64,000 nt of DNA from Rubrivirga marina (GTDB lineage Bacteria > Bacteroidota > Rhodothermia > Rhodothermales > Rubricoccaceae). Location of the stretch: assembly GCF_002283365.1 (NCBI RefSeq), contig NZ_MQWD01000001.1, positions 869,694 to 933,693 of the forward strand. The letters are read 5' to 3'. How positions within the stretch are numbered: the first letter of the stretch is position 1; every line of letters begins with the position of its first letter. Below the pieces are notes generated by a model, which saw nothing but the letters and a program-made list of their open reading frames with translations, did not search any database and was not told the DNA's origin. This document shows, piece by piece, positions 2,492 to 60,841 of the stretch. Both the position numbers and the translations under genes were made by a program.

Positions 2492-2513
2492 TCCGCCTCG
2501 GCGCCGAGGCGGA
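2492..2513. repeat. GC-rich intergenic palindrome, tight form
   Basis: Perfect palindrome with core CCTCGGCGCCGAGG, 9 bp after the J-domain gene's stop codon (minus strand). Member of the family described in the findings; no U-tract follows. Confidence 0.9.
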
Positions 2514-2522
2514 GAGAGTCGG

Positions 2523-3383
2523 CTACAGCAGGCCGACGCGGCGGGCGGCCTCCTCGAGCGCCTCGCGCTGCTCGTCGGTCAGCGAGCGCGGGACGGTCAC
2601 CTGGACCTCGACGAACAGGTCACCGCGGCGCGAGTCGGTCTCGACGCCCTGGCCGCGGAGCCGGAGCCGCTCGCCCGGCTGCGTGCCCGGCGGGATGTGG
2701 ACCTTGATCGTCTGGCCGTAGGCGTTCGTGATCGAGCGAGTCGCGCCGAGCATGGCCTCGACGGCGGAGACGATCTCGACCACGTGGAGGTTGTCTCCTT
2801 CACGCCGGAACCGGGCCACCGGGTCGACCCGGAACGTGACGTAGAGGTCGCCGCGCTCCCCAGTCCCACCGGCCCGCCCACGACCGCGCACGCGAACCTT
2901 GAGGCCGGAGCGGACGCCCTTCGGGACGGTCAGCCGGACCGTCTCGCCGTCGACCAGCCGGACCTCGGTGCGACCACCGCGCAGGGCCTGATCGAAGGTG
3001 AGCTTGACCTGCGCCTCGACATCGGCGCCGCGACCAGCGGGCGTGGGCTCGTCGCCGAAGAAGAGCGAGACGAGCGGGTCGTAGCCGTCGGGCCCAAACG
3101 GCGACGTGCGGCTGGACGACGGACGGGAGCGGCCGTCGAGCCCGCCGCCCAGGCCGCCAAAGAGCGACTGGCGGGCCTCGTCGTAGGACTCACGCCGGCG
3201 CGGGTCCGAGAGCACGTGATAGGCTCGCTGGACGGCCTTGAACCGCTCCTCGGCGTTCGGGTCGCCTGGGTTCCGGTCGGGGTGAGAGTCCCGCGCGAGT
3301 GACCGGTACGCGCGCTTGATCGTCTCCGGAGACGCGGTCTCCGGGACGCCAAGGAGCGTGTAGTAGTCGGTAACTTCAGCCAT
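2523..3383 (-). CDS. DnaJ-like co-chaperone without zinc finger (CbpA type)
   Basis: Hsp40-type co-chaperone that would stimulate DnaK ATPase. The 286-residue product starts with a J domain (YYTLLGVPETAS, then the HPD motif in SHPDRNPGD near residue 36). A Gly/Phe-type linker (LFGGLGGGLDG) follows, then two substrate-binding beta domains ending in VTVPRSL. The four CxxCxGxG repeats of classical DnaJ are absent, which places it with CbpA/DnaJB-type proteins. The start is the ATG in front of AEVTDYYTLLG; the frame stays open further upstream, but that part looks non-coding and overlaps the opposite-strand biotin carboxylase gene. It is transcribed away from accC, so the 114 bp between them should hold both promoters. 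Confidence 0.93.
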   Translation of the reverse strand: MAEVTDYYTLLGVPETASPETIKRAYRSLARDSHPDRNPGDPNAEERFKAVQRAYHVLSDPRRRESYDEARQSLFGGLGGGLDGRSRPSSSRTSPFGPDGYDPLVSLFFGDEPTPAGRGADVEAQVKLTFDQALRGGRTEVRLVDGETVRLTVPKGVRSGLKVRVRGRGRAGGTGERGDLYVTFRVDPVARFRREGDNLHVVEIVSAVEAMLGATRSITNAYGQTIKVHIPPGTQPGERLRLRGQGVETDSRRGDLFVEVQVTVPRSLTDEQREALEEAARRVGLL

Positions 3384-3497
3384 CAGGGGATTCTCAAGGC
3401 GGGCCGCTCGGGGCACGCGTTCTGCCAATGGACGCATGACACCCGGTCGGGGATTCCCCGGTACAGACACCGTGCCAACGCCCCAGACCGCGACGTG

Positions 3498-5003
3498 ATG
3501 ACACCCCGCCCGATCCGTACTCTCCTCGTCGCCAACCGCGGGGAGATCGCCGTCCGCGTCCTCCGGACGTGCCGCGAGCGGGGCATCCGCACGGTCGCCG
3601 TCTACTCTGAGGCCGACCGGAACGCCCTCCACGTCCGCCTCGCCGATGAGGCCGTCGCCATCGGGCCGGCCGCTTCGTCCGAGTCGTACCTCGCGGTGGA
3701 CAAGGTCATCGAGGCCGCTCGCCGGTCGGGCGCCGATGCGATCCACCCGGGCTACGGGTTTCTCTCGGAGAACGCCGCTTTCGCGCAGGCCGTCGAGGAG
3801 GTGGGGATCGTCTGGGTCGGCCCGCCGCCGGCCGCGATCTCGGCGATGGGCGACAAGACGGAGGCGCGCAAGCTGATGGCCGAGGCCGGCGTCCCCATGG
3901 CCCCCGGCACGCCCGACGCCATCGACGACCCCGCCGAGGCGGAGCGGGTCGCGGGCGAGATCGGGTACCCCGTGCTGGTCAAGGCCGCGGCTGGCGGCGG
4001 CGGCAAGGGGATGCGCGTCGTCGAGCGGGCGGAGGACTTCGCCCAGTCGTTCGAGCGGGCGCGGAGCGAGGCGCAGAACGCGTTTGGCGACGGCCGCGTC
4101 TACGTCGAGAAGTACCTCGTGGGGCCGCGACACATCGAGATCCAGGTCCTGGCGGACGGTCACGGGAACGTGGTCCACCTGTTCGAGCGGGAGTGCTCGA
4201 TCCAGAGGCGGCACCAGAAGGTGATCGAGGAGGCTCCGTCGGCCGTGCTCACGCCGGAGTTGAGGGCCGCGATGGGAGAGGCCGCGGTGCAGGCGGCGAA
4301 GGCGTGCGACTACGTCGGAGCGGGCACCGTCGAGTTCCTGCTCGATGCGAACCGCGACTTCTACTTCCTCGAGATGAACACGCGGCTCCAGGTCGAGCAC
4401 CCGGTCACGGAGCTGATCACGGGCCTCGACCTCGTGGCCGAGCAGATCCGCATCGCAGAGGGCGAGCCGCTTGGCTACGGGCAGGACGACCTGGAGATCT
4501 GGGGCCACGCCGTCGAATGCCGGGTCTACGCCGAGGACGTGCCGGCCGGCTTCCTCCCCGCCCCGGGCCCGCTCCTCCGGCATCGCCCGCCCTCTGGCCC
4601 CGGCGTCCGGGTCGACGCCGGCGTCGAAGAAGGCGACGAGGTGCCCGTCTACTACGACCCGATGGTGGCCAAGCTCTGCACCTGGGCGCGGACTCGTGAG
4701 GAGGCCATCCGCCGGATGGGTCGCGCGCTCGCGGAGTATGACGTGGCCGGGATTCGGACGACGATCCCGTTCTGCCGGACCGTCATGCGGAACCCCGCCT
4801 TCGTGTCGGGCGACTTCGACACGGGCTACGTTGCGAACCACTTCGACCCGGCTACGCTCGCGCCCTCCGAGGCGGCGCTCGAGACGGCACGGCTGGCGGC
4901 CGGCCTGGTCAGCCTCGACGCGGCGCCGGCCGCGGTCGGGAACGGAGCGGCGTCCGCGCCGGTGCCAGTCCCGAGCCGCTGGATCCGCCGCCGCGTGGTC
5001 TGA
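3498..5003 (+). CDS. accC: Biotin carboxylase (acetyl/acyl-CoA carboxylase subunit)
   Basis: ATP-dependent carboxylation of the biotin on a carrier protein, the first half-reaction of acetyl- or propionyl-CoA carboxylase. The 501-residue protein has the N-terminal domain (TLLVANRGEIAVRV), the ATP-grasp glycine loop (KAAAGGGGKGM, near residue 160), the FLEMNTRLQVEHPVTE signature and a biotin-carboxylase C-terminal domain. About 45 extra Ala-rich residues follow the usual AccC end. A GTG lies directly before the chosen ATG and could also start translation. No biotin carrier protein or carboxyltransferase gene is next to it; a Fur-family gene follows after 25 bp on the same strand. Whether it serves acetyl-CoA or another acyl-CoA carboxylase cannot be told from here. 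Confidence 0.94.
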   Translation: MTPRPIRTLLVANRGEIAVRVLRTCRERGIRTVAVYSEADRNALHVRLADEAVAIGPAASSESYLAVDKVIEAARRSGADAIHPGYGFLSENAAFAQAVEEVGIVWVGPPPAAISAMGDKTEARKLMAEAGVPMAPGTPDAIDDPAEAERVAGEIGYPVLVKAAAGGGGKGMRVVERAEDFAQSFERARSEAQNAFGDGRVYVEKYLVGPRHIEIQVLADGHGNVVHLFERECSIQRRHQKVIEEAPSAVLTPELRAAMGEAAVQAAKACDYVGAGTVEFLLDANRDFYFLEMNTRLQVEHPVTELITGLDLVAEQIRIAEGEPLGYGQDDLEIWGHAVECRVYAEDVPAGFLPAPGPLLRHRPPSGPGVRVDAGVEEGDEVPVYYDPMVAKLCTWARTREEAIRRMGRALAEYDVAGIRTTIPFCRTVMRNPAFVSGDFDTGYVANHFDPATLAPSEAALETARLAAGLVSLDAAPAAVGNGAASAPVPVPSRWIRRRVV

Positions 5004-5028
5004 GGTCCTTCCCTTTCCCATCGAAACG

Positions 5029-6817: not shown

Positions 6818-6843
6818 CCGCCCACCTCGCCGCCGAGGCGGCC
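6818..6843. repeat. GC-rich intergenic palindrome, degenerate copy
   Basis: Imperfect copy (CCGCCCACCTCG / CGAGGCGG) between the convergent pyrR and PASTA-protein genes, 6 bp after the pyrR stop. Confidence 0.6.
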
Positions 6844-7601: not shown

Positions 7602-7985
7602 GATGAGGGGGACGAGGGGGCGCCCCGGGCATCGGTGGCGCGTCCTTAAAGATACCCGATCTGCCGGGCGCCTCCGCCCTCACAATCGCCTCACCTCCTC
7701 TCCATCGCCTGTCCATGGACACCCCCGGAATAGGTCCGTACCATGGTTCTCCGCAGCAAGGGAATGGTCGTCCGCGACCAACGCCGAGCCGCCCTGTTCT
7801 CTATCGGATGACGGATCAGACCGCCCCGCGAGGCGGCCCGGCAAAGGGTTCGTGAACCCCGCCGCGGCGCTTGCGGTCGGCAGCATCCGACCCGTACCAT
7901 GGGTTCCCCTCTCGCGAGGGGCAGGGGCCTCGCCATCCGGCATCTGCCGGGTCTCGGAATCGAAAGACAAGAGACGGTGAAGCGC

Positions 7986-8014
7986 TTGACACCTGGCTAC
8001 GGAATCCGTAGATT
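7986..8014 (+). promoter_or_regulatory. Candidate rRNA operon promoter
   Basis: TTGACA, 17 bp, TAGATT. The -35 is a perfect sigma-70 consensus and the -10 matches TATAAT at four of six positions. The same -10 stretch extended (TAGATTGG) also resembles the Bacteroidota -7 element TAnnTTTG. It lies about 260 bp before mature 16S and upstream of the processing stem, as expected for an rrn promoter. Confidence 0.6.
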
Positions 8015-8084
8015 GGCAGGACGCCCTGGAAGCAAAGCTGGTCTCGACCAGCCGTTCTCCTCGGCACCGTTCATTGAGAGATTG

Positions 8085-8109
8085 GAAGCATAGCGAGCCC
8101 TCGTCGGCC
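8085..8109 (+). other. 16S rRNA processing stem, left arm
   Basis: GAAGCATAGCGAGCCC plus GTCGGCC is complementary to a segment about 40 nt beyond the 16S 3' end: 16 bp, a 2-nt mismatch, then 7 bp. Such stems are cut by RNase III to release pre-16S; an rnc gene is present elsewhere in this window. Confidence 0.85.
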
Positions 8110-8161
8110 GCTCTCCCACTGGTTCGCCAGCGGGTAGCGGACAGACGAGAATAAGTCAACC

Positions 8162-8181
8162 TGGACTGCTTCGGCAGTCCA
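8162..8181 (+). other. UUCG-capped hairpin in the rRNA leader
   Basis: An 8-bp stem (TGGACTGC / GCAGTCCA) closed by a TTCG tetraloop and followed by an A-rich run. It lies between the processing stem and 16S. Likely a leader RNA structure or antitermination element. Confidence 0.6.
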
Positions 8182-8275
8182 ACCAAAAAAGCTCAACAGC
8201 AGGCGATGTCGGAGACGGCATCGCAACTCGATCCCTGACCCGAGTCTTCGGACTCATCAGGAGATCAACCTCTCT

Positions 8276-9809
<1,534 letters not shown>

Positions 9810-9850
9810 CAGAGCTCGACGCTCCTCTGCCCGCAGCGCTCTGCGCTGGT

Positions 9851-9875
9851 GGCCGACATGGGCTCGCTATGCTTC
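9851..9875 (+). other. 16S rRNA processing stem, right arm
   Basis: GGCCGAC..GGGCTCGCTATGCTTC, the reverse complement of the segment upstream of 16S apart from two bases. Confidence 0.85.
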
Positions 9876-10062
9876 TCTCTCTCAACCTCGGTGTCACCGG
9901 GTGTTCGAAGGCGCTTCATGGGTAGGCTCTCAAAGCCTCCCTATGTTCTGTGCCCGCCGGATGGCGACCCATCCACGAGGCCTCGGCCTCTGTTCTTTTA
10001 GACCGTTGTTGGTCCGCTCCCACCGGAGCGACCGTCCAGCCAAACGCCCGGTGGCGTGACGC

Positions 10063-10136
<74 letters not shown>

Positions 10137-10176
10137 CCGCTGGCGCGCTGCATCGCAGTAGCCAGGCACGCTTATC

Positions 10177-10349: not shown

Positions 10350-10351
10350 TT

Positions 10352-10495: not shown

Positions 10496-13413
<2,918 letters not shown>

Positions 13414-17583: not shown

Positions 17584-19377
17584 ATGCCCGACGCTACCCC
17601 GGCCGGGGTCTCCGACGTGGAGACCGCCGCCCCCGACACACGCTGGACCCTCCGCCCGGTTGAGGACGAGCTCCTCGTCGACGCCCTCGCGGCCGACCTG
17701 AACAAGCTCCCGCACGCCCTCGCTCGCTCGCTCGCTCTCCGTGGCGTCCGCAGCTTCGACGACGCGCACACGTTTTTCCGGCCGTCGCTCTCGCGCCTCC
17801 ACGACCCCCACCGGATGCGCGACATGGACCGGGCCGTCGCCCGCGTCGCCGCCGCCATCTGGGGGCAGGAGCGCGTCCTGGTTTACGGCGACTACGACGT
17901 CGACGGGACGACGTCGACGGCGATGATGACGACGTTCCTCCAAAGCCAGGGCCTGGAGGTCAGCTTCTTCATCCCCAACCGGTTCGAGCACGGGTACGGC
18001 ATCAGCGAGGCCGGCATCGACATCGCCGCCGAGCGCGGAGCCACGCTCATCGTCGCCCTCGACTGCGGCATCACGGCCGTCGACGAGGTGGCCTACGCGT
18101 CGTCGAAGGGGATCGAGATGGTCATCTGCGACCACCACACGCCGGGCGACGTGCTGCCGGCCGCCGCGGCGGTCCTCGACCCGAAGCGCCTCGACTGCGA
18201 GTACCCGTTCGACGGGCTCAGCGGCTGCGGCGTCGGGTTCAAGCTGATCCAAGCCGTCATCGCGGAGCTGGGCCTGCCGGAGGAGGAGGCGTGGCCGTAC
18301 CTCGACCTCGTCGCCGTGAGCACCGCCTGCGACATCGTCCCGATGGTGGGCGAGAACCGCGTGCTGATGCGGGCCGGACTGAAGCAGCTGTGCGACGCCC
18401 CCCGCGTCGGGATCGTGGCCCTGGCGGAGCGCGCGAACGTGGACCTCAACGCGTGCACGTCGTCGAAGATGGTGTTCCAGATCGGCCCGCGGATCAACGC
18501 CGCCGGCCGGATCGACGACGCGAGCGTGGCCGCCGAGCTCCTCGCCTCGACCGACCCCGACCAGGCCCGCCGCCTCGTCGACGCCATCGAGGCCCTCAAC
18601 CTCCGCCGCCGCGAGCTCGACCGCCAGACGCGCGACGAGGCGTTCGAGATCGCCGAGCGGCAGATGCAGGACGACCCGCTCGCGCTCGTCGTCTACAAGC
18701 CCGGCTGGCACCCCGGCGTCATCGGCATCACCGCGAGCCGCGTGGCCGAGCAGTTCCACCGGCCGACGGTCCTCCTCACGTCGAACGGCGTCGCGAGCAC
18801 GGCGAAGGGCTCGGCGCGATCGGTCAAGGGAATCTCGATCTACGAGGCGCTCTCGCACTGCTCCGACCTCCTCGACCGGTTCGGCGGGCACGCCTTCGCG
18901 GCGGGCCTCGCGCTCCCCATCGAGCGCGTCGACACGCTCCGCGACCGGCTCCAAGAGGCCGTCGGCCTCGCCGTCGCCGACACCGACGACCTCATCCCCG
19001 AGGTCGAGATCGACGCGCCCCTCCACCTCGCCGAGGTCACGCCCCGCTTCTGGAGCGTGCTCAAGCAGTTCGGCCCGCACGGCCCCGACAACCTCCGACC
19101 GACGTTCTGGGGCCGCGGCCTGAAGGTCGTTGGCCAGCCGTCGTGTGTCGGCGCGCAGAAGCAGCACCTTCGGATGCGCGTGGCCCAGATCGACGGCGGG
19201 CCGACGTTCTCCGTCATCGGCTTCGGGCTGGCGGACCGGTACGACGCCGCGCTCACGAGCGTCCGCCGGGGCCGACCCCTCGAGCTCGCCTTCCAGGTCG
19301 ACGAGAACACGTGGAACGGGCGGACGACGCTCCAGCTCCGCGCCCAGGACCTCCGCCTCGACGCCGAGGCGGGGTGA
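17584..19377 (+). CDS. recJ: Single-stranded-DNA-specific exonuclease RecJ
   Basis: 5'-to-3' ssDNA exonuclease of recombinational and mismatch repair. The DHH phosphoesterase motifs are intact: YGDYDVDGTTS near residue 100, LDCGITAVDE, and the name-giving DHH in ICDHHTPGD near residue 180. The DHHA1 domain follows (GSARSVKGISIYEAL, GGHAFAAGLAL) and then the C-terminal OB-type domain. The 597-residue length is normal. The last codons (RLDAEAG) and the region just before the stop are formed by a copy of the GC-rich palindrome, so the repeat contributes the C-terminus. Confidence 0.95.
   Translation: MPDATPAGVSDVETAAPDTRWTLRPVEDELLVDALAADLNKLPHALARSLALRGVRSFDDAHTFFRPSLSRLHDPHRMRDMDRAVARVAAAIWGQERVLVYGDYDVDGTTSTAMMTTFLQSQGLEVSFFIPNRFEHGYGISEAGIDIAAERGATLIVALDCGITAVDEVAYASSKGIEMVICDHHTPGDVLPAAAAVLDPKRLDCEYPFDGLSGCGVGFKLIQAVIAELGLPEEEAWPYLDLVAVSTACDIVPMVGENRVLMRAGLKQLCDAPRVGIVALAERANVDLNACTSSKMVFQIGPRINAAGRIDDASVAAELLASTDPDQARRLVDAIEALNLRRRELDRQTRDEAFEIAERQMQDDPLALVVYKPGWHPGVIGITASRVAEQFHRPTVLLTSNGVASTAKGSARSVKGISIYEALSHCSDLLDRFGGHAFAAGLALPIERVDTLRDRLQEAVGLAVADTDDLIPEVEIDAPLHLAEVTPRFWSVLKQFGPHGPDNLRPTFWGRGLKVVGQPSCVGAQKQHLRMRVAQIDGGPTFSVIGFGLADRYDAALTSVRRGRPLELAFQVDENTWNGRTTLQLRAQDLRLDAEAG
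19353..19372. repeat. GC-rich palindrome inside the 3' end of recJ
   Basis: Stem CCGCCTCG / CGAGGCGG with an ACGC loop, ending 2 bp before the recJ stop codon, so it is translated. Confidence 0.9.
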
Positions 19378-21316: not shown

Positions 21317-21338
21317 TCCGCCTCGGCGCCGAGGCGGA
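21317..21338. repeat. GC-rich intergenic palindrome, tight form
   Basis: Perfect 22-nt palindrome with CGGCGCCG centre, 5 bp from the stop codon of the DUF4126 gene (minus strand). Confidence 0.9.
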
Positions 21339-23838: not shown

Positions 23839-23880
23839 TCCGACTCCGCCCGCCTCGACGTCGAGGCGGGCGGAGTCGGA
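23839..23880. repeat. 42-bp perfect palindrome containing the GC-rich repeat core
   Basis: Perfectly self-complementary over 42 bp (21-bp arms, centre GACGTC). It contains CCGCCTCG / CGAGGCGG extended outward by GACTCCGCC / GGCGGAGTC. The longest member of the family here and the only non-coding one far from any stop codon. Confidence 0.95.
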
Positions 23881-24653: not shown

Positions 24654-24681
24654 CCGCCCGCCTCGACAGCGAGGCGGGCGG
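24654..24681. repeat. GC-rich intergenic palindrome, 4-nt loop
   Basis: Perfect 12-bp stem (CCGCCCGCCTCG / CGAGGCGGGCGG) with loop ACAG, 10 bp after the OsmC gene's stop. Confidence 0.92.
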
Positions 24682-26376: not shown

Positions 26377-26410
26377 CCGCCCGCCTCGGCAACTCTCCCG
26401 AGGCGGGCGG
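26377..26410. repeat. GC-rich intergenic palindrome, 8-nt loop
   Basis: Stem of 13 bp (CCGCCCGCCTCGG / CCGAGGCGGGCGG) around CAACTCTC, 6 bp after the porX stop. Confidence 0.92.
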
Positions 26411-26443: not shown

Positions 26444-27301
26444 ATGGACGCCCCGCCTCCCGGCTACCTCGCGGCGACCGTCGAGCGACGCCTCGACGTC
26501 ACGGACGACCTCGCTGTCTTCTGGCTCCGTCCGCCGGAGCCGCTCGCGTTCCGGCCCGGCCAGTACGTCACGCTCGCCGCGCCGGGCGACGCCGGCCGGC
26601 CCGTCAAGCGGGCCTACTCCGTCGTCTCCGCACCGCACGAAGCCCTGGTCGAGCTCGTCGTCGAGCTCGTCCACGACGGGGCGCTGACGCCCGACCTGTG
26701 GCGGCTCCGCGCGGGCGACGTCGTGTGGGTCCGGAAGAAGGTCGTCGGGCAGTTCCTCCTCGACGCCGAGCGGACGCGCCATGTCATGGCGTGCACCGTG
26801 ACCGGCATCGCCCCGTTCCTGTCGATGATCCGGGCCCACGCCGCCGCGCGCGATGCCGGTGCCGAGGTGCCCGACCACCGGTTCCTGGTCGTCCACGGCG
26901 CGAGCCGGTCGGTCGAGCACGGCCCGTACCGCGACGAGCTGATGCTGTGCGCCGAGGGCGGCTGGGTCACGTGTGTCCCGACCGTGAGCCGGCCGTGGGA
27001 GGACCCCGAGTGGGCGGGCGAGGTCGGCCGGGTCGAGGACGTCCTCCGCAAGCACCTCGACGGCCTCGGGTGGCCGGCGGGCGAGGTCGCCGGCTACGCC
27101 TGCGGCAACCCCAACATGATCGAGACCGCGCTCGGCGTCCTCCGCCGGGCGGGCGTCGATCCAGCGCACCTCCACGAGGAGAAATACTTCACCGTCGCCG
27201 AGCCCGCGCCCGAGGCGGTGCCCGCTCCGCCGCCGGCGCCCTCGCCGTCCGGGCGCGGACCGGGCTCGATCACGCTCAAGGCCGTGCCCCGCACGCCGTG
27301 A
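26444..27301 (+). CDS. Ferredoxin-NADP+ reductase-like FAD oxidoreductase
   Basis: A 285-residue flavoprotein of the Fpr type, shuttling electrons between NADPH and ferredoxin or flavodoxin. FAD-binding RAYSVVSAP is near residue 50, the nucleotide-binding TGIAPFLSMIR near residue 117, and YACGNPNMIE near residue 217. The usual GTG of the NADP loop is replaced by TVTG. After the family's usual EKYF ending comes a Pro/Ala-rich tail of about 45 residues (APPPAPSPSG), which looks disordered. It follows porX by 73 bp. Confidence 0.88.
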   Translation: MDAPPPGYLAATVERRLDVTDDLAVFWLRPPEPLAFRPGQYVTLAAPGDAGRPVKRAYSVVSAPHEALVELVVELVHDGALTPDLWRLRAGDVVWVRKKVVGQFLLDAERTRHVMACTVTGIAPFLSMIRAHAAARDAGAEVPDHRFLVVHGASRSVEHGPYRDELMLCAEGGWVTCVPTVSRPWEDPEWAGEVGRVEDVLRKHLDGLGWPAGEVAGYACGNPNMIETALGVLRRAGVDPAHLHEEKYFTVAEPAPEAVPAPPPAPSPSGRGPGSITLKAVPRTP

Positions 27302-27914: not shown

Positions 27915-29288
27915 TCAGCGGCCGGGCGTCGCCGGGGCGAGCCGCCAGCCGCCGGCGGTCCGCTGGAGCGACTGCCCGCGCGGCGTGTCCGGCCCTTCGG
28001 CCGCGCCGAGGTCCATCGAGCGGAGGCCGAAGGCCGGGCCGTCCGTGCCCTCGAACGCGCCCTCGTAGCTGAGGAGCTCGGCGACGGCGCCGTCCGGCCC
28101 GACGAGCGCGACGCCGTCGGGCGAGCCGTTCTGGAGGCCGGGCGTGTCGGCCCACACCGCGCCCGAGGCGGGCAGGGCGCCGGCCAGCGCGACCTCGTCG
28201 TAGACCCGTCCGCCGTTCCCGTTGTAGAGGACGAGCCGCCAGCCGTCGAGCGACGTGCCGGGCGGGCCGGCCACCTCAACCCCTTCGCCGGCGTCCTCGC
28301 CTGCGTTGTCGTAGTGGATCTCGGTGATCCGGAGCGGACCCCTCGACTCGCCCGGCCTCGGCGCCGAGGCGGGGGGAGCCGAGGCACCGAGTTGGGATCC
28401 GCCGGTCGGGGTCTGCCCTCCCCCGCCCCAGAGCCGGTCCGCCAGCGACGGGTCGAGGACGAACGGGTTCTCCGTTCCCTGGAGCGAGGCGACCCAGGCG
28501 CTCCGGGCGCGCTCCCCGGCGTCGGGCGGGTCGAGGCGGTTCCAGGTCAAGAGGTCGGCCTCCATGGCGCGGAAGAAGCTGGGCTCCGCGAGCTCGGGGT
28601 AGACGGCCGCGACGTAGAACACGGCCCTCGCCACGTCTCCTTTCTTCGGTTCGGGCGGCTCGAAGCGGCCGGCGCCGCGCTCGGCCCAGGCGTCGCGCTC
28701 GGCGTCGGGCGGGCGCGACTGGCTCTGGTCGCGGAGGTACCACGCGTCGGAGTCCTCGTCGTCGATCTCGCCGAACGGGAGGTTGCCACGCGACGAGTTG
28801 ACGGTCTGGCGGGCCGGAAACAGGTGGTGGAGGTCGCTCTTGAGCGGCTCGGTGCGCGCGCCCATCGACTGCGGCCAGACGTGCTCGGCGTTGATCTCGA
28901 GCCGCATCGCCTCGGCCGACGGGTCGCCCGGGGGCAGCGTCACGCAGTAGGCCGAGTAGACGCCACAGAGCGTGCCGGTCGTCTCCTGCTCGTGCGCGTA
29001 GAGGACGTCGCGGGCACGCGTGTAGCCGAGCGTCCCGGTGGGGGAGTAGTCGCGGTCGATCGCCGCCGCCAGCGCCTCGGCGCCGAGGCCGGGGAAGAGG
29101 CCGCCGTCGACCGCCGCGGGGGCGTCCGCCTCGGTGCCGAGGCGGGCCGAGTCGTCGAACGAGCCGGCCGTCGAGACGCCGTCGTCGCGGAAGGGGCCGG
29201 CCGTCTGGGCGCCGTCACCGCCGCAGGCGGCCAGCGCCACGGTCCACAAGCCGAGGGTCGCGGCCCGGCCCCAGGCCCTCCCGCTCAT
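27915..29288 (-). CDS. Lipoprotein endonuclease I with C-terminal lamin-tail-like domain
   Basis: A 457-residue exported nuclease. A lipoprotein signal ends in the lipobox LAACGGD. The nuclease domain (about residues 70-300) has the beta-beta-alpha-metal motif INAEHVWPQSMG, LHHLFPARQTVNSSRGNLPFG and GDVARAVFY, as in endonuclease I / BsuBI-type secreted DNases. After a linker (about 300-330) a beta-rich domain begins ITEIHYDNAGEDAGEGVEV, typical of lamin-tail domains on extracellular nucleases. Three copies of the GC-rich palindrome lie inside the gene, two near the N-terminal linker (encoding ARLGTEAD and GLGAEALA) and one in the interdomain linker. Probable role: extracellular DNA degradation for phosphate or nucleosides. 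Confidence 0.9.
   Translation of the reverse strand: MSGRAWGRAATLGLWTVALAACGGDGAQTAGPFRDDGVSTAGSFDDSARLGTEADAPAAVDGGLFPGLGAEALAAAIDRDYSPTGTLGYTRARDVLYAHEQETTGTLCGVYSAYCVTLPPGDPSAEAMRLEINAEHVWPQSMGARTEPLKSDLHHLFPARQTVNSSRGNLPFGEIDDEDSDAWYLRDQSQSRPPDAERDAWAERGAGRFEPPEPKKGDVARAVFYVAAVYPELAEPSFFRAMEADLLTWNRLDPPDAGERARSAWVASLQGTENPFVLDPSLADRLWGGGGQTPTGGSQLGASAPPASAPRPGESRGPLRITEIHYDNAGEDAGEGVEVAGPPGTSLDGWRLVLYNGNGGRVYDEVALAGALPASGAVWADTPGLQNGSPDGVALVGPDGAVAELLSYEGAFEGTDGPAFGLRSMDLGAAEGPDTPRGQSLQRTAGGWRLAPATPGR
28355..28370. repeat. GC-rich palindrome within the endonuclease gene, interdomain linker
   Basis: GCCTCGGCGCCGAGGC, perfect, lying where the protein changes from the nuclease to the lamin-tail domain. 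Confidence 0.9.
29074..29089. repeat. GC-rich palindrome within the endonuclease gene, N-terminal part
   Basis: GCCTCGGCGCCGAGGC, perfect, encoding LGAEA before the nuclease domain. It may be partly constrained by coding. Confidence 0.85.
29127..29146. repeat. GC-rich palindrome within the endonuclease gene, post-signal linker
   Basis: Stem CCGCCTCGG / CCGAGGCGG with a TG loop, encoding ARLGTEAD just after the lipoprotein signal. Confidence 0.88.
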
Positions 29289-32335: not shown

Positions 32336-32357
32336 CCCGCCTCGGCCCCGAGGCGGG
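32336..32357. repeat. GC-rich intergenic palindrome, 2-nt loop
   Basis: CCCGCCTCGG / CCGAGGCGGG around CC, 5 bp after the stop of the first M16 gene and inside the presumed operon. Confidence 0.92.
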
Positions 32358-33838: not shown

Positions 33839-33858
33839 CCGCCTCGACATCGAGGCGG
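33839..33858. repeat. GC-rich intergenic palindrome, 4-nt loop
   Basis: CCGCCTCG / CGAGGCGG around ACAT, 2 bp after the stop of the second M16 gene. Confidence 0.92.
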
Positions 33859-36861: not shown

Positions 36862-36881
36862 CCGTCTCGGCCCCGAGGCGG
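36862..36881. repeat. GC-rich intergenic palindrome, imperfect
   Basis: CCGTCTCGG / CCGAGGCGG around CC, 2 bp from the amidohydrolase stop (minus strand). Confidence 0.8.
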
Positions 36882-40498: not shown

Positions 40499-40583
40499 CC
40501 CCGCCTCGGCGGCTCCCCGGGCGAAGCCGCCGGCCCCGAGCCTGCCACTTGCCCGAGCCTGTCGAAGGGAGGGGCCGAGGCGG
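40499..40583. repeat. GC-rich palindrome with a 63-bp internal insertion
   Basis: Arms CCGCCTCGGC and GCCGAGGCGG are perfect complements but lie 63 bp apart. The insert holds its own hairpin (GGCGGCT / AGCCGCC; the first GGC is shared with the left arm) and the motif GAGCCTGTCGAAGGG, a common bacterial repeat sequence. Begins directly after a stop codon. Confidence 0.8.
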
Positions 40584-41561: not shown

Positions 41562-41583
41562 TCCGTCTCGGCGCCGAGGCGGA
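41562..41583. repeat. GC-rich intergenic palindrome, tight form
   Basis: TCCGTCTCGG / CCGAGGCGGA around CG (one G-T mispair), 11 bp after the lipoprotein stop. Confidence 0.88.
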
Positions 41584-42951: not shown

Positions 42952-42987
42952 CCCGCCTCGGTCCGTCGGCGGGCGCACCGAGGCGGG
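42952..42987. repeat. GC-rich intergenic palindrome, 14-nt-loop class
   Basis: CCCGCCTCGGT / ACCGAGGCGGG around a 14-nt loop (CCGTCGGCGGGCGC), between the convergent DUF488 and PIG-L genes. Confidence 0.92.
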
Positions 42988-47456: not shown

Positions 47457-47490
47457 CCGCCTCGGTGTCTCCGGGGAGCGACCGAGGCGG
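47457..47490. repeat. GC-rich intergenic palindrome, 14-nt-loop class
   Basis: CCGCCTCGGT / ACCGAGGCGG around a 14-nt loop (GTCTCCGGGGAGCG, with an inner CTCC/GGAG pair), 6 bp from the gltD stop. Confidence 0.93.
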
Positions 47491-48945: not shown

Positions 48946-48963
48946 GGCGGTGCGGGTCGGTCG

Positions 48964-48979
48964 GCCTCGGCGCCGAGGC
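48964..48979. repeat. GC-rich palindrome, tight form
   Basis: GCCTCGGCGCCGAGGC, perfect, 18 bp upstream of the gltD start codon, an exception to the usual place after a stop. Confidence 0.88.
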
Positions 48980-49028
48980 GGGATGGGCTGGAGGCGTGTG
49001 GCGCGGATGGCGTCACCCTCTCCCCGTG

Positions 49029-49221: not shown

Positions 49222-49255
49222 CCGCCTCGGTGGCCCCGGGGACCGACCGAGGCGG
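49222..49255. repeat. GC-rich intergenic palindrome, 14-nt-loop class
   Basis: CCGCCTCGGT / ACCGAGGCGG around a 14-nt loop (GGCCCCGGGGACCG), 6 bp from the gltB stop. Confidence 0.93.
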
Positions 49256-52200: not shown

Positions 52201-53797
52201 TGATCAGCGACGTCACCAACTCCTCGCGGATCGCGTCGAGCGGCGGGTTCGTGACCTGCGCGAACCGCTGGCGGAACCGGTCGAAGAGGAGCCGCGGGCG
52301 GTCGGAGAGGGCTGCGATCGGCGTGTCGTCGCCCATCGACCCGAGGGCCTCCTTGCCGTCGCCGGCCATCGGCGGGATGAGGAGGCCGAGGTCCTCCTGC
52401 GTGTAGCCGTAGAGCCGGAGCCGCTCCTCGAAGCTCAGGCCGTCGTTGGCCACAGCGGCCTCGGCCTCGTCGTGGAGGTCGCCGAGGCGGACGAGGCTGC
52501 GGGCGAGCCACGCGTCGTACGGCGCGTCGGTGGCGAGGCCGGCCTTGATCTCCTTGTCGCTCACGATCCGCCCCTCGTCCAGGTTGAGGAGGAGCATCTT
52601 CCCCGGCTCCAGCCGCCCCTTCTCGACGATCGTCGCCGGGTCGAGGTCGAGCACGCCGGTCTCGGACGAGAGGACCACGAGCCCGTCGGAGGTCACGGTG
52701 TAGCGCGACGGGCGGAGGCCGTTGCGGTCGAGGACAGCACCGAGGGTCGAGCCGTCGGTGAACTGGATGGTGGCCGGGCCGTCCCACGGCTCGAGGGCGC
52801 AGGCGAACGCCTCGTAGAAGGCCCGCCGCGCGGGGTCCATGTCGGGCGCGTGCTCCCAGGCCTCGGGCACGAGCGCCATGATGGCCTGCGGCAGCGGCCA
52901 GCCGGCGTGGACGAGCAGCTCGAGCGCGCCGTCGAGCGACTTCGAGTCCGAGTCGCGGTCGTCGAGCGTGGGCAGGACGTCCTTCAGCCGTCGCCCGAAG
53001 GCCGACGAGAAGAACGCGGCCTCGCGCGCGCGCCACGCGTTCCGGTTGCCGAGAACCGTGTTGATCTCGCCGTTGTGGCACAGCGTCCGGAACGGCTGCG
53101 CGAGCGGCCACTGCGGCATCGTGTTCGTCGAGAACCGCGAGTGGACCATCGCGAGGGCGCTCTTGAAGCGCGGGTCGCGGAGGTCGGGGTAGAACGCCGC
53201 CAGCTGGGCGGGCGTCAGCATCCCCTTGTACGTCGTCGTCCGCGACGAGAACGACACGACGGCGAACGGGTCGGCGAACGTCGCCTCGCGCTCGATCCGG
53301 CGGCGGGCGATGTAGAGGGCCCGCTCGACGTCGGCCCCCCGCTCGACGCCGTCGGGCCGGGCGACGACAGCCTGCACCACGACCGGCTGCGACTGGCGCG
53401 CGATGGGCCCGGGCACGTCGGCCTCGGTGGGCACCTCGCGCCACCACAGCAGCGGGATCCGCTCCTCTAGGAGGATCCGCTCGACGAGGGCACGGCCTTC
53501 GGCGACGGCGTCCTCCGGAAGGAAGAGCATGGCGAGGGCGTAGTCGCCCTGGGCCGGGAGCTCGACGCCCGCCTCCTCGGCGATCGAGCAGAGGAAGGCG
53601 TCGGGGAGCTGGACCGTGATGCCGCAGCCGTCGCCAGTCTGTCCGTCGGCCCCGATCGCCCCGCGATGGTCAAGGCGCACCAGGATCTCCAGCCCCTGCG
53701 TCACGATCGCGTGCGACGGCAGATTGGTCAGCGTGGCGACGAACCCGACGCCACACGCGTCGTGGTGGTCGGCGGGCGAATAGAGCGTGCGCGACAT
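49262..53797 (-). CDS. gltB: Glutamate synthase (NADPH) large subunit
   Basis: A 1511-residue enzyme making two glutamates from glutamine and 2-oxoglutarate with GltD. The Ntn-type amidotransferase nucleophile is Cys15 (HHDACGVGF), exposed after cleavage of a short propeptide. Further blocks are HSRFSTNTMPQWPLAQP, the FMN domain (PGEGGQLPGFKV, SPPPHHDIYSIEDLAQLI, GSDGGTGAAAQTSI), the 3Fe-4S cysteines in CIMMRKCHLNACPVG, and the C-terminal beta-helix (YDxGxGL-type repeats, GGRVVVLGTTGRNF). The length is normal. The leader is pyrimidine-rich (CCACTCCCCTCCTGCC). The upstream region holds several dyads. Confidence 0.96.
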   Translation of the reverse strand: MSRTLYSPADHHDACGVGFVATLTNLPSHAIVTQGLEILVRLDHRGAIGADGQTGDGCGITVQLPDAFLCSIAEEAGVELPAQGDYALAMLFLPEDAVAEGRALVERILLEERIPLLWWREVPTEADVPGPIARQSQPVVVQAVVARPDGVERGADVERALYIARRRIEREATFADPFAVVSFSSRTTTYKGMLTPAQLAAFYPDLRDPRFKSALAMVHSRFSTNTMPQWPLAQPFRTLCHNGEINTVLGNRNAWRAREAAFFSSAFGRRLKDVLPTLDDRDSDSKSLDGALELLVHAGWPLPQAIMALVPEAWEHAPDMDPARRAFYEAFACALEPWDGPATIQFTDGSTLGAVLDRNGLRPSRYTVTSDGLVVLSSETGVLDLDPATIVEKGRLEPGKMLLLNLDEGRIVSDKEIKAGLATDAPYDAWLARSLVRLGDLHDEAEAAVANDGLSFEERLRLYGYTQEDLGLLIPPMAGDGKEALGSMGDDTPIAALSDRPRLLFDRFRQRFAQVTNPPLDAIREELVTSLITHLGEAQNVLEPGPELCRRLRLEQPVLTPDDLARVRAFGDRDPAFRTATLDATLGPDETLADGVARLVTEAASAIEQRSSILILSDSAANAERAPIPALLAVGAVHHGLIRRGLRTFAELVVETGEAREVHHVAALVGYGASAVCPTLLVDTVRWLAEAGHVEGTPDEAVARTVKAIGKGLLKVLSKMGISTLRSYQGAQIFEALGLADEVVEAAFAGTPSRIGGATFADLEAELRQRHAQVPFENGLDVGGRYQWRRGGERHAWGPEAIVRLQQAVRADDEDAGRYVSFTAFSTSVDDLSRRRSTLRSLLDFVHAETPVDTDEVEPWGDIVTRFKTGAMSYGSISKEAHETLAVAMNRLGGKSNTGEGGESPERYPASNPARSRIKQIASGRFGVTAEYLGTADEIQIKMAQGAKPGEGGQLPGFKVVGPIAKARHATPGVGLVSPPPHHDIYSIEDLAQLIFDLKTVNPEARVTVKLVSEAGIGTIAAGVAKAGADTILVSGSDGGTGAAAQTSIAHAGLPWELGLAEVQQALRATGLRQRVRLEVDGHLKTGRDVVIGALLGADEFGFATAPLVAMGCIMMRKCHLNACPVGIATQDETLRSHFRGTPESVVNYFHFVAEEARQILAALGLRTLAEARGRVDLLTTSPAAAATGLDLGAVLAEVETPEILRPFEDNPQGGPVSPAVRQEARRSILEALDRGERAEAALDVRNSDRAFGTRLSGALARRSVAGAAPLADNSVVVRARGSAGQSLGAFGAQGLTIRLEGDANDYVGKGLSGARLVVVPPAEAGFVPSEQVLIGNVALYGATSGALFARGRAGERFAVRNSGATAVVEGVGDHGCEYMTGGRVVVLGTTGRNFGAGMSGGKAYVLDLDSQFVARRVNPETVDLLPVARGSEDAEELRQLIEAHAAETGSETARILLDDWPAALRRFVLVFPTEYRRALMAEGGAPIEHAPDRPAATAEAAAPADVSQHA

Positions 53798-54272: not shown

Positions 54273-55631
54273 TCAGTCGACCCAGATCGTCTTGGCGTTG
54301 ACGAAGGCGTGGATGCCCTGCCGCGCGAGCTCGCGGCCGTAGCCCGAGACGCCGATGCCGCCGAACGGAAGATTCGGGTGGCTCTTCGTCATCTCGTTCA
54401 CGAACACGGCGCCGGACCGGATCTCGCGTGCCAGCCGCTCTCCCTTGGCCGCGTCCCGCGTCCACACGCTCCCGCCGAGCCCGAACGGCGTCGCGTTCGC
54501 CAGGCGGACCGCGTCGTCGGCGTCCTCGGCCGTGACGAGCGACGCGACGGGGCCGAAGATCTCCTCGTCGAACGCCGGGCTGCCCTCCGTCACGTTCCCG
54601 AGGACGGTCGGCGGGTAGTAGAAGCCGGTGCCGTCGGGGATCGCGCCGCCCGTGAGGATGTCCGCGCCCGCCTCGGCGGCCCGCTCGACCTGCTCCTGAA
54701 TGCCCTCGCGGGCCTTGCCGTTCACGAGCGGCCCGAGGTCCACGTCGCACATCGGGTCGCCGACGGTGAGCGCCTCCATCCGCTCGACGAACCGGCGCGT
54801 GTACGCCTCCGCGATCGGCTTCTCGAGGATGAACCGCTTGGCCGCGATGCACGACTGGCCGTTGTTCTGCACGCGGGCCGTCACGCCCGTCTCGACGGCC
54901 GCGTCGAGGTCGGCGTCGGCCAGCACCACGAACGCGTCGGACCCGCCGAGCTCCAGCACGGACGGCTTGAGCGCCTCGCCCGCCGCCTTCCCGACCGCGC
55001 GGCCGGCCGTCTCGGAGCCCGTCAGCGTGACGGCCCGGATCCGGTCGTCGGCGATGGCATCCGCCGCCTGGTCGTGGTCGATGACGAGGTGCTGGAAGAC
55101 GCCCTCGGCGAAGCCCGCCTCGGCGAACAGCTCGGCCATCCGGTCGCCGCACCCGAGGACGGCCTCGGCGTGCTTCAGAATCCCCACGCCGCCGGCCATG
55201 ACGGTCGGCGCGGCGAAGCGGAAGGCCTGCCAGAACGGGAAGTTCCACGGCATGATGGCGAGGACCGGCCCCAGCGGCTCGTAGGCCACGAAGCTTCTCG
55301 ACGCCTCCGTCTCACGCACCTCGTCCGCCAGGAAGCGCTCGGCGTGCTCGGCGTAGTAGCGGCAGACCCAGGCGCACTTTTTCGCTTCGGCGACGGCCTG
55401 GTCGAGCGGCTTGCCCATCTCGGTCGTCATGAGGCGGCCGAGGGCGTCGGCACCGTCTTCCAGCAGGTCGGCCAGCCGGCGCATGGCCTCCGCGCGCTGG
55501 CCGAAGGCCGACCGGCGGTGTGCCTCGAAGGCGTCGGCGGCCCGGTCGAGCGCCGCGTCGAGGTCGGCGTCGGAGGCGGTCTCGTAGTGGGCGATCTCGG
55601 CCTCGGTGGCCGGGTTGACGGTGGTCGGCAT
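54273..55631 (-). CDS. Aldehyde dehydrogenase, succinate-semialdehyde dehydrogenase type
   Basis: A 452-residue NAD(P)-dependent aldehyde dehydrogenase. VLAIMPWNFPFWQAFR, TLTGSETAGRAVG, catalytic Glu in VLELGGSDAF and catalytic Cys in NNGQSCIAAKRFIL are all present, as is FDEEIFGPVASL. The sequence (KPLDQAVAEAKKCAW) and short length are typical of the GabD/Sad-like group that oxidises succinate semialdehyde to succinate. No GABA transaminase is adjacent. It is transcribed toward gltB; rnc is divergent. The leader is CGCCCCCTGCGCTCGCTCCC, C-rich. Confidence 0.92.
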   Translation of the reverse strand: MPTTVNPATEAEIAHYETASDADLDAALDRAADAFEAHRRSAFGQRAEAMRRLADLLEDGADALGRLMTTEMGKPLDQAVAEAKKCAWVCRYYAEHAERFLADEVRETEASRSFVAYEPLGPVLAIMPWNFPFWQAFRFAAPTVMAGGVGILKHAEAVLGCGDRMAELFAEAGFAEGVFQHLVIDHDQAADAIADDRIRAVTLTGSETAGRAVGKAAGEALKPSVLELGGSDAFVVLADADLDAAVETGVTARVQNNGQSCIAAKRFILEKPIAEAYTRRFVERMEALTVGDPMCDVDLGPLVNGKAREGIQEQVERAAEAGADILTGGAIPDGTGFYYPPTVLGNVTEGSPAFDEEIFGPVASLVTAEDADDAVRLANATPFGLGGSVWTRDAAKGERLAREIRSGAVFVNEMTKSHPNLPFGGIGVSGYGRELARQGIHAFVNAKTIWVD

Positions 55632-56636: not shown

Positions 56637-56656
56637 CCGCCTCGGCGCCGAGGCGG
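56637..56656. repeat. GC-rich intergenic palindrome, tight form
   Basis: CCGCCTCGGC / GCCGAGGCGG without loop, 11 bp after the rnc stop, with right flank GGCCGGG. Confidence 0.93.
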
Positions 56657-56840: not shown

Positions 56841-59690
<2,850 letters not shown>

Positions 59691-59700: not shown

Positions 59701-59722
59701 CCCGCCTCGACGCCGAGGCGGG
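59701..59722. repeat. GC-rich intergenic palindrome, 4-nt loop
   Basis: CCCGCCTCG / CGAGGCGGG around ACGC, 10 bp after the gcvP stop and 15 bp from the stop of the convergent 53-residue ORF. The right flank GGCCGGCC pairs partly with the left GGCCCC. Confidence 0.92.
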
Positions 59723-59899: not shown

Positions 59900-59932
59900 G
59901 GTCCCATGTCGTGAGCTTACAGCAACATAGAC

Positions 59933-59966
59933 ATGCGCCCCGCCGGCCGAAGCCGACGGGGCGCAT
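59933..59966 (-). terminator. Terminator hairpin after the HEAT-repeat gene
   Basis: Perfect 10-bp stem (ATGCGCCCCG / CGGGGCGCAT) with a 14-nt loop, 21 bp beyond the stop on the minus strand; the tail is GTCTATGTTG. Confidence 0.7.
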
Positions 59967-59987
59967 TGTTGAAGCAGGGCGGTCGGC

Positions 59988-60503
59988 CTACGGAGTCCTC
60001 TCGGTGAGGGCCCCCTCGATCAGACCCATCAGGGCCGGGTCGTGGCGGAGCGCGTACGTCCCGTAGTGGTCGACGAGGACCGCCGCGAGGAGGCGTCGGA
60101 CGTTCGGGTGGCCCCGCTGCTCGACCTCAGCCTCGACTTCGGCGCGGAGCGCGGCCATGGCGGCCTCGTCGCCCGACGCCTCGAGCGCACGGAGGGCCAT
60201 GACGCGGAGCCGCTCGTCGGCGTCGGTCCGGTAGACGGAGAGGAGGGCCGGGACCGCCGGTCGGATGTCGGCGCCCTCGACGAAGCCGAGCGTCGCGACC
60301 GCGTGGAGGGCGTCGGTACGGACGCGATCAGACGGGGACTCGAGCGCTTCCACGACGGCGGCGCTGACGCGGAGGGGGGCGTCGGGCGTCCCGGCGAACG
60401 GGGCGGCCCCCAGGAAGGTGGACCGGGGGAACGTGTCGGGTTGGGCGTGGGCGGCCCCGACGAGGGTGCAGACGGCGAGCGCTGCGGTAAGGGGGAGTCT
60501 CAT
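59988..60503 (-). CDS. Secreted HEAT-repeat protein
   Basis: A 171-residue exported protein: Sec signal (LTAALAVCTLVGAAHAQ), then helical HEAT-type repeats (VVEALESPSDRVRTDALHAVATLG, ERLRVMALRALEASGDEAAMAAL, NVRRLLAAVLVDHYG). Such periplasmic HEAT proteins usually mediate protein contacts. No specific partner is suggested by the neighbours. Confidence 0.82.
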   Translation of the reverse strand: MRLPLTAALAVCTLVGAAHAQPDTFPRSTFLGAAPFAGTPDAPLRVSAAVVEALESPSDRVRTDALHAVATLGFVEGADIRPAVPALLSVYRTDADERLRVMALRALEASGDEAAMAALRAEVEAEVEQRGHPNVRRLLAAVLVDHYGTYALRHDPALMGLIEGALTERTP

Positions 60504-60841
60504 GGGAACAGGGGGGAAAGGAGAGCGGCCCTACGCCCCCTGCTCCGGTGGGTTACGCTCTGCTGCACGTCGCCGAGCGCAAGCCCGGGACAGGACCCCT
60601 CGGCGCCGAGGCCGTGACGGTCCAGCGTGTCGTCGTCCGTACGTTCGCGTCGGCCGCGGCTGTGGGAGTGCGCTCCAGCGGTCGCGCCCATCGTATGGGT
60701 TGGTTCCTCGTGCCCCTTGAAGCGCGGGAGAGACGAGGCGTCCGTCAGCCTCCAGAGCGTCCGCGAGGCCGGCGTTGTCGGTTGCCATCGAGTTCAGGCC
60801 CCCTCACGAGACGCGGAGGCCCCTCCCCTCTACTCAACCCC
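60504..60841. other. Gap between the HEAT-repeat and AraC-type genes
   Basis: About 340 bp. The AraC frame stays open through it but the translation (Arg/Pro-rich) does not look like protein. It contains one short palindrome copy. No promoter stands out. Confidence 0.5.
60598..60611. repeat. GC-rich palindrome, short copy
   Basis: CCTCGGCGCCGAGG, the bare core, in the HEAT/AraC divergent gap. Confidence 0.8.

What the first reader, a model, noticed from the sequence alone, without database searches (positions are those of the whole stretch)
2492..60611. A GC-rich palindrome family sits at gene 3' ends throughout the window
At least 23 copies with arms CCGCCTCG / CGAGGCGG (core often CCTCGGCGCCGAGG) are listed individually in the features. 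Most begin 1-25 bp from a stop codon, on either strand, between convergent genes and inside presumed operons (for example between the two M16 genes). They occupy the place of an intrinsic terminator but have no U-tract. Arm sequence is strongly conserved while loops vary from none to 14 nt, as expected if the stem itself is selected or if the element is mobile. Possible roles are mRNA 3'-end stabilisation, factor-dependent termination, a protein-binding site or a REP-like element. No REP-associated transposase is visible here.
Basis: seen in the sequence. Interest (0 to 1): 0.75.

Follow-up and report, generated by a model that had tools for sequence, protein, structure and literature searches.

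The report
Genome watermark word forming gene-end palindromes
The palindromes at gene ends are inverted pairs of a short lineage-specific DNA word that is scattered through the whole genome and differs between sister species, much like the self-recognition tags that two bacterial families use when taking up DNA.

Summary
The palindrome CCGCCTCG...CGAGGCGG occurs 14 times exactly in the window (0.01 expected) and 537 times in the genome (reversed control 4). In a 1.26-Mb sample, 101 of 157 exact copies lie -5 to +40 bp from a stop codon and 6 lie between divergent genes. None of 107 copies near stops has a U-tract.

The arm, CCGAGGCGG, is the most over-represented 9-mer inside genes after synonymous-codon shuffling, on both strands, evenly along genes. 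Relatives carry other words in the same two settings: GCTGGCGG in one same-genus species, GCCTCTGGCG in a sister genus (14,176 copies in 4.4 Mb, control 61). Each word also forms inverted pairs after stop codons.

This matches DNA uptake sequence dialects, stated in 2025 to be known only from Neisseriaceae and Pasteurellaceae (PMC12616744, passage). Chi, HIP1-like and REP/RAYT readings fit poorly. ComEC and DprA are present but not specific. Uptake is untested; core-gene bias and site conservation were not found. A 3'-end hairpin role and a protein-binding role remain open.

The parts
2493..2512 (.). exact palindrome, loop 4, 10 bp after stop of - gene 2523-3383
6822..6841 (.). palindrome, one arm mismatch, loop 4, 10 bp after stop of + gene ending 6811 (convergent)
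19353..19372 (.). exact palindrome, loop 4, inside the last codons of the recJ gene (17584-19377)
21318..21337 (.). exact palindrome, loop 4, convergent, 6 bp after stop of - gene 21344-21841; a close copy at the orthologous end in G001
23839..23880 (.). exact palindrome with 21-nt fully complementary arms (core 23850-23869), between divergent genes
24658..24677 (.). exact palindrome, loop 4, 14 bp after stop of + gene 24185-24643
26381..26406 (.). exact palindrome, loop 10, 10 bp after stop of response regulator/PglZ gene; a GCTGGCGG word at the orthologous end in G003
28353..28372 (.). palindrome, one arm mismatch, inside - gene 27915-29306
29126..29145 (.). exact palindrome, loop 4, inside - gene 27915-29306
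32337..32356 (.). exact palindrome, loop 4, 6 bp after stop, between the two M16 peptidase genes; same pair at the orthologous end in G001
33839..33858 (.). exact palindrome, loop 4, 2 bp after stop of second M16 gene (convergent)
36862..36881 (.). palindrome, one arm mismatch, 2 bp after stop of - gene 36884-38140
40501..40529 (.). degenerate palindrome (two mismatches), loop 13, 2 bp after stop
41563..41582 (.). palindrome, one arm mismatch, 12 bp after stop
42953..42986 (.). exact palindrome, loop 18, convergent, 6 bp after stop of - gene 42993-43709
47457..47490 (.). exact palindrome, loop 18, 6 bp after stop of - gene 47497-48945, before the cobalamin riboswitch that precedes the next - gene
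48962..48981 (.). palindrome, one arm mismatch, between tandem genes, 280 bp after stop
49222..49255 (.). exact palindrome, loop 18, 6 bp after stop of - gene 49262-53797
56637..56656 (.). exact palindrome, loop 4, 11 bp after stop
59702..59721 (.). exact palindrome, loop 4, 11 bp after stop of glycine dehydrogenase gene (convergent)
60598..60611 (.). core CCTCGGCGCCGAGG only, outer arm bases not kept
27210..27218 (+). example of a single (unpaired) word CCGAGGCGG inside gene 26444-27301; 56 words lie in the window, none in 7602-13702 (rRNA operon)
58177..58185 (+). example of a single word inside the glycine dehydrogenase gene
54668..54676 (-). example of a single word on the - strand, inside gene 54273-55631

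Best explanation
The palindromes are inverted pairs of a lineage-specific, non-palindromic 9-10 bp DNA word (CCGAGGCGG[G]) that marks the whole genome in the way a DNA uptake sequence (DUS/USS) does. Single copies are spread through genes in both orientations. Where two copies meet head to head after a stop codon, the pair is retained, can form a stable hairpin in the 3' UTR and probably sets or protects the mRNA 3' end. Sister species have switched to other words (dialects), so the recognising factor, inferred to be a surface DNA receptor of the competence/type IV pilus machinery, has changed specificity. Shown here: the word, its excess within genes, strand neutrality, the 3'-end pairs and three dialects. 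Inferred: that a competence receptor reads it, and what the hairpin does.
For: CCGAGGCGG is the top 9-mer in own coding sequence against synonymous shuffles (699 vs 303, z 22.8; sd over 9310 words 2.7) and in G001 (224 vs 80.5); the top 8-mer of G003 is CCGCCAGC/GCTGGCGG (642 vs 204) and the top 10-mer of G004 GCCTCTGGCG (821 vs 37). Each genome's top coding word is also the arm of its inverted pairs after stops. Sense and antisense copies are both in excess, and the excess is flat along genes. Orientation is even over the sampled stretches of all 4 genomes, also with pairs left out. Whole-genome counts: GCCTCTGGCG 14,176 in G004 vs control 61, at most 99 in the other 59 genomes searched, own included; CCGAGGCGGG 1778/1369/1030 in G000/G001/G002 vs controls 140/59/100; CGCTGGCGG 3889 in G003 and 3973 in G007 vs controls 575 and 614; GCTGGCGG inverted pairs 265 and 347 in G003 and G007, at most 20 in the other 58. 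The lowest-density stretch of G003 is a defence island (SIR2, type I restriction) and that of G000 carries a transposase and an integrase. ComEC and DprA in 9 of 9 family members, PilT-family match in 8 of 9.
Against: No uptake data exist. Competence markers are not specific (the ComEC and DprA searches also ring in E. coli), and G007 has the word but no PilT match. Three of nine family members (G005, G006, G008) have ComEC and DprA but none of the three words above background; their own words, if any, were not found. Word density does not differ between genes with and without homologues in the other samples (4 of 4 genomes not significant). Words are not significantly better conserved at orthologous coding sites than control words (0.31 vs 0.23 +- 0.11). 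Spacing is more even than random in G000 only and more clustered in G004. The coding excess in G000 (2.3-3.1 fold) is modest next to G004 (about 21 fold), and among 8-mers the lead is slim: CCGAGGCG z 20.3, the unrelated CGAGCGCG 19.6, GCTGGCGG 19.0. Single-word counts also exceed the reversed control in some order-level relatives (CGCTGGCGG up to about 3.4 fold; CCGAGGCGGG up to about 5 fold at low counts), so they are less clean than the pair counts. Unlike Neisseria and Haemophilus pairs, these lack a T-tail. Word density tracks codon typicality significantly only in G003.
Confidence: 0.52

Rival explanations
1. The element is first of all an mRNA 3'-end hairpin (exonuclease barrier or factor-dependent termination site) whose arm sequence is fixed by a species-specific RNA-binding factor; the excess inside genes is a by-product.
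For: Placement 2-14 bp after stops, rare between divergent genes (6 of 157 exact copies). More frequent at convergent ends (94 of 310) and spaced tandem ends (94 of 466) than where the next gene starts within 40 bp (10 of 268, where there is also little room). Few canonical hairpin+T terminators (45 of 1044 gene ends vs 17 of 1044 reversed control), and they co-occur with the element slightly less than expected (5 vs 10.4).
Against: Single words are in excess inside genes on both strands and evenly along genes. Outer flanks do not covary (5.49 pairs of 10 vs 5.64 +- 0.10 permuted) and loops fold not significantly better than shuffled (n 15, 6, 10 and 7 for loops of 10, 13, 18 and 22 nt). Presence at orthologous ends is only partly kept (6 of 15 G000 copies shared with G001, Fisher p 0.002; G000-G003 p 0.74).
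Confidence: 0.2
2. The word is a site for a DNA-binding or DNA-modifying protein (nucleoid or repair protein, orphan methyltransferase), a non-palindromic analogue of HIP1.
For: DNA-level symmetry without base-pair covariation; words gained and lost between close relatives, as described for HIPs in PMC4390886 (passages); quantised arm spacing.
Against: The single words are not palindromic, unlike HIP1; the passages of PMC4390886 seen do not mention terminators or gene-end pairs (0 occurrences of 'terminator'); 9-10 bp is long for a methyltransferase site (my general knowledge, not tested). No search for methyltransferases was made.
Confidence: 0.2
3. REP/BIME-like mobile palindromes spread by a RAYT (Y1) transposase.
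For: Hundreds of near-identical palindromes, most of them extragenic; Y1 matches on contig C10 of G000 and in G002, G003, G004 and G007.
Against: G001 has 229 copies and no Y1 match. Unpaired words inside genes. Y1 genes also occur where the G000 palindrome is rare (3, 4 and 13 copies in G003, G004 and G007).
Confidence: 0.04
4. Chi- or KOPS-like recombination or segregation signal.
For: Over-represented short word in genes.
Against: Single words show no orientation heterogeneity over sampled stretches in the four genomes (chi2 60.7 df 57; 14.5 df 19; 12.2 df 19; 22.4 df 19 for G000, G001, G003, G004); inverted pairs at gene ends.
Confidence: 0.04

Closest known systems
Neisseriaceae DNA uptake sequence (DUS) dialects
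   Same: 10-mer in about a thousand to several thousand copies, inside genes and between them; dialects differing between related species; inverted pairs linked to gene ends; overlapping dyads in S. muelleri resemble those of G004 (PMC3630211, passages).
   Different: Other phylum and sequence; no T-tail; dialects differ within one genus and recur across genera; no receptor or uptake shown; density in G004 about 3.2 per kb.
Pasteurellaceae uptake signal sequence (USS)
   Same: Short word, paired copies reused at terminators (PMC1852404, passages; PMC5217627, passages).
   Different: USS pairs prefer the orientation that gives A/T tails (PMC1852404); here 0 of 107 pairs has a T-tail.
HIP1 of cyanobacteria
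   Same: Very frequent word; wholly different words can be gained in close relatives (PMC4390886, passages).
   Different: HIP1 is a perfect palindrome tied to methyltransferases; these single words are not palindromic and form 3'-end pairs.
REP/BIME elements with RAYT
   Same: GC-rich extragenic palindromes after stop codons (recalled from general knowledge).
   Different: No transposase match in G001; single words in genes.
Intrinsic terminators
   Same: GC-rich hairpin after the stop codon.
   Different: 0 of 107 with a U-tract; separate hairpin+T sites exist at some window gene ends.

Membership tests
DNA uptake sequence (DUS/USS) | 9-12 bp word far above expectation genome-wide | tested here: met
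   strongest in G004, modest in G000
DNA uptake sequence (DUS/USS) | both orientations, in genes and between genes, no replichore bias | tested here: met
   (sampled stretches; origin not located)
DNA uptake sequence (DUS/USS) | inverted pairs at gene ends | tested here: met
DNA uptake sequence (DUS/USS) | inverted pairs carry a T-tail and look like intrinsic terminators | tested here: not met
   0 of 107 in G000
DNA uptake sequence (DUS/USS) | dialects among relatives | tested here: met
   three words in six of nine family members
DNA uptake sequence (DUS/USS) | scarce in foreign DNA | tested here: inconclusive
   lowest stretches L137 and L043 carry island genes; of L096 one gene only was scanned (a kinase), L049, L083 and L094 not at all; correlation with codon typicality significant in G003 only
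DNA uptake sequence (DUS/USS) | enriched in core genes | tested here: not met
   no difference in 4 of 4 genomes, with a weak proxy
DNA uptake sequence (DUS/USS) | competence machinery present | tested here: inconclusive
   ComEC 9 of 9, DprA 9 of 9, PilT-family 8 of 9 (5 over the cut-off); markers not specific
DNA uptake sequence (DUS/USS) | word increases DNA uptake through a specific receptor | not testable with these tools
   needs experiment
REP/RAYT | cognate Y1 transposase in genomes with the repeat | tested here: not met
   G001 (97% complete): 229 copies, no Y1 match
HIP1-like | the over-represented word is itself a palindrome | tested here: not met
   CCGAGGCGG, GCTGGCGG and GCCTCTGGCG are not palindromes
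HIP1-like | cognate DNA methyltransferase | not tested
   no search made
Chi/KOPS | strand bias along the replichore | tested here: not met
   (sampled stretches, weak GC skew, origin not located)
Intrinsic terminator | U-tract after the stem | tested here: not met

The most novel reading that the evidence does not exclude
Probability: 0.4. Interest if true: 0.9.

Novelty: new variant of a known kind. Interest (0 to 1): 0.76.

Why it matters
[quoted passage not shown] A third case in a distant phylum would show that this trait evolves repeatedly. Sister species with different words would also allow receptor specificity to be mapped by comparison. If instead the word is read by an intracellular protein, it is a new class of genome-wide, fast-switching site. 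Either way, terminator finders that demand a T-tail would miss these 3' ends.

Tried and rejected
REP/RAYT: searched Y1_Tnp in six genomes; absent in G001. Chi/KOPS: no orientation bias. RNA structure beyond the arms: no covariation of outer flanks, loops fold not significantly better than shuffled. Codon or amino-acid bias as the source of words in genes: synonymous shuffles keep both and do not give the counts. A first gene caller that confused strands was replaced before any count used here. Gene-end artefact as the source of the coding excess: ruled out, excess flat along genes. Rfam: six matches at gathering threshold, none at a palindrome. Core-gene bias, site conservation and even spacing as marks of uptake sequences: not found or mixed. 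The genome-contig scan for more relatives gave no close relative and was not used. Dialects of G005, G006 and G008 were not found from the 4 to 7 kb in hand. Literature searches for an earlier report: 'uptake signal sequence' + overrepresented + Bacteroidetes, 0 papers; 'DNA uptake sequence' + Bacteroidota, 0; Rubrivirga + natural transformation, 0; uptake sequence / Rhodothermus / Salinibacter, none of the 15 listed of 54 holds 'uptake sequence'; two wider searches (15 of 51 and 5 of 5 listed) named no Rhodothermia case in what was shown. Two papers were searched for Rhodothermus and Salinibacter: 0 occurrences. The library lacks most subscription journals, so this is not proof of absence. 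All papers cited were seen as passages only; none was read whole.


Full report
Observation. The palindrome family is real. The window holds 14 exact copies of CCGCCTCG-N0-20-CGAGGCGG against a shuffle mean of 0.01, and the genome (4.98 Mb, 11 contigs) holds 537 against 4 for the reversed control. With gene calls from a home-made hexamer caller on the window plus 60 stretches of 20 kb (1.264 Mb, 1107 calls), 157 exact copies were placed: 73 between tandem genes, 42 inside genes, 33 between convergent genes, 6 between divergent genes and 3 at stretch ends. 101 of the 157 lie within -5 to +40 bp of a stop codon, an interval covering 3.8% of the sequence. The commonest distance is 6 bp (32 of 101). 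200 of 1056 genes have a copy with at most one mismatch within 60 bp after the stop. None of 107 exact copies near stops has a U-tract.

Anatomy. Loops cluster at 4, 10, 13, 18 and 22 nt. Intergenic pairs have symmetric outer preferences that read roughly GACYCCGC before the left arm and GCGGRGTC after the right arm (flank table); stop codons often overlap this flank (listing). Outer flanks pair no better with their own partner than with permuted partners (5.49 against 5.64 +- 0.10 pairs of 10), and loops of 10, 13, 18 and 22 nt (n 15, 6, 10, 7) fold not significantly better than shuffled loops. So the conservation looks like one of sequence, symmetric at the DNA level, and not of a longer base-paired stem. 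Quantised loop lengths are unexplained.

The arm is a genome-wide word. In 1053 complete own genes CCGAGGCGG occurs 699 times against 296 +- 12 in synonymous shuffles that keep protein and codon usage; sense 392 against 156, antisense 307 against 140. Ranked over the 9310 9-mers seen at least 30 times in coding sequence (6 shuffles) it is first, z 22.8 with a sd of 2.7 over all words; among 8-mers the lead is slim (CCGAGGCG z 20.3, the unrelated CGAGCGCG 19.6). G001 (same genus) gives the same 9-mer first, 224 against 80.5. The excess is flat over five fifths of gene length, ratios 2.2 to 2.7 in G000. Most copies are single and within genes: 676 of 1109 in the sample.

Dialects. In G003 (same genus) the palindrome of G000 is nearly absent (3 copies). 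Its gene ends and coding sequence are enriched instead for GCTGGCGG (642 against 204 in genes), paired mostly with gaps of 3, 6 or 7 nt, 17 of 36 such pairs within 60 bp after stops. In G004 (other genus, same family) the word is GCCTCTGGCG: 821 in genes against 37 expected, 1334 in a 400-kb sample (67 times a third-order Markov expectation), 14,176 in the genome against 61 for the control, with overlapping perfect dyads, many of them after stops; 161 of 324 sampled G004 genes have an own-word pair within 75 nt after the stop. G007, of the same genus as G004, has 347 GCTGGCGG pairs and 3973 CGCTGGCGG words (control 614), like G003. G002 shares the G000 word (272 palindromes). Outside these genomes the inverted pairs are rare: G000 palindrome at most 13 (G007) in the other 37 of 40 genomes, GCTGGCGG pairs at most 20 (G000) in the other 58 of 60. 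Single-word counts are less clean: some order-level relatives reach about 3.4 times the reversed control for CGCTGGCGG and about 5 times at low counts for CCGAGGCGGG, against 6.5-6.8 in G003/G007 and 10-23 in G000-G002. So three words serve six of the nine family members, the pattern does not follow genus boundaries, and G005, G006 and G008 show none of the three. In G000 the G003 word is itself the third most over-represented coding 8-mer (575 against 265), and 20 of its pairs exist (control 1), three of them on contig C10. This may be a remnant of an older dialect or a trace of exchange.

Orthologous gene ends. Among reciprocal best hits of the samples, 6 of 15 G000 genes with a pair also have one in G001, against 4 of 66 without (Fisher p 0.002); between G000 and G003 or G004 each species' own pairs show no association (p 0.74 and 0.37). 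Examples: the first M16 gene has the same pair in G000 and G001; the PglZ gene ends with a pair in G000 and a GCTGGCGG word in G003. Some ends carry a separate hairpin with a T-rich tail that is conserved in relatives, for instance after 22175-23710 (G001, G003) and 33941-36724 (G001) (read by eye), so the pair is not the only hairpin at gene ends. Canonical hairpin+T sites were found at 45 of 1044 ends (17 of 1044 in the reversed control); 5 co-occur with a pair against about 10.4 expected.

What reads the word. Orientation of single words is even over sampled stretches in all four genomes (with pairs), against Chi or KOPS; the origin was not located and GC skew is weak. The words are not palindromes, against HIP1. 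Y1 transposases are absent from G001, against RAYT. The remaining known class that combines a 9-10 bp word, both strands, genes and gaps, inverted 3'-end pairs and dialects is the uptake sequence (PMC3630211 and PMC1852404, passages). A 2025 paper calls Neisseriaceae and Pasteurellaceae the only families known to do this (PMC12616744, passage), and a 2026 terminator survey reports such words from those two families (PMC13020248, passages). ComEC is present in 9 of 9 family members with long alignable open frames, DprA in 9 of 9, a PilT-family match in 8 of 9, five over the cut-off. These are permissive, not proof: the ComEC and DprA searches also ring in E. coli.

Results against the uptake reading. 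Density is equal in genes with and without homologues in the other samples (0.64 against 0.66 per kb in G000). Word sites are not significantly better conserved than control words between G000 and G001 (0.31 against 0.23 +- 0.11); between G000 and G003, 0 of 23 CCGAGGCGG sites are shared (controls 0.17), as expected if the word was dropped or replaced. Spacing is more even than random in G000 (CV 0.88 against 1.01 +- 0.04), not clearly different in G001 and G003, and more clustered in G004 (1.06 against 0.90 +- 0.03). Word-poor stretches carry island genes in the two cases examined in some depth (G003 L137: SIR2, type I restriction; G000 L043: IS110 transposase, integrase), but density tracks codon typicality significantly only in G003 (rho 0.69). 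The T-tail of classical uptake-sequence terminators is missing.

Verdict. I am confident (about 0.9) that the palindromes are inverted pairs of a genome-wide lineage-specific word that switches between close relatives, and hold an uptake-sequence function as most likely (0.52). An mRNA 3'-end function of the pairs is compatible with it and may be true at the same time. Limits: own gene caller, samples of about 9 to 25% of each genome, unnamed relatives, and no more letters from those genomes.

Noticed in passing
window 8276-13658: Complete rRNA operon (16S, two tRNAs, 23S, 5S); it holds no copy of the word.
   Followed up: partly
window 47150-47386 (-): Cobalamin riboswitch upstream of the - gene 45178-47100, with a loop-18 palindrome between it and the preceding gene.
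   Followed up: no
G000 sample (1.264 Mb): 12-mer TGTCATCCTGAG, 22 copies, about 640 times the Markov expectation, and 10-mer AAGCGCTTCC, 32 against 1.2; other repeat families unrelated to the word.
   Followed up: no
L137 (G003:C1:540001-560000): Low-GC island with SIR2/STALD, type I restriction HsdR and HsdM genes; word count 8 against a mean of 42 per 20 kb.
   Followed up: partly
G000 contig C10: Three GCTGGCGG inverted pairs (foreign dialect) and both Y1 transposase matches of G000 lie on this contig; possibly a replicon or island from another dialect group.
   Followed up: no
window 23839-23880: One copy has fully complementary 21-nt arms and sits between divergent genes, the only exact window copy there.
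   Followed up: no
G007 loops of 19 nt (listing) and G000 loops of 22 nt: Long loops in G007 often contain an inner CTCGSCGAG, and some G000 loops of 22 nt an inner GACTC..GAGTC (read by eye); loop lengths are quantised in both species, for unknown reasons.
   Followed up: partly
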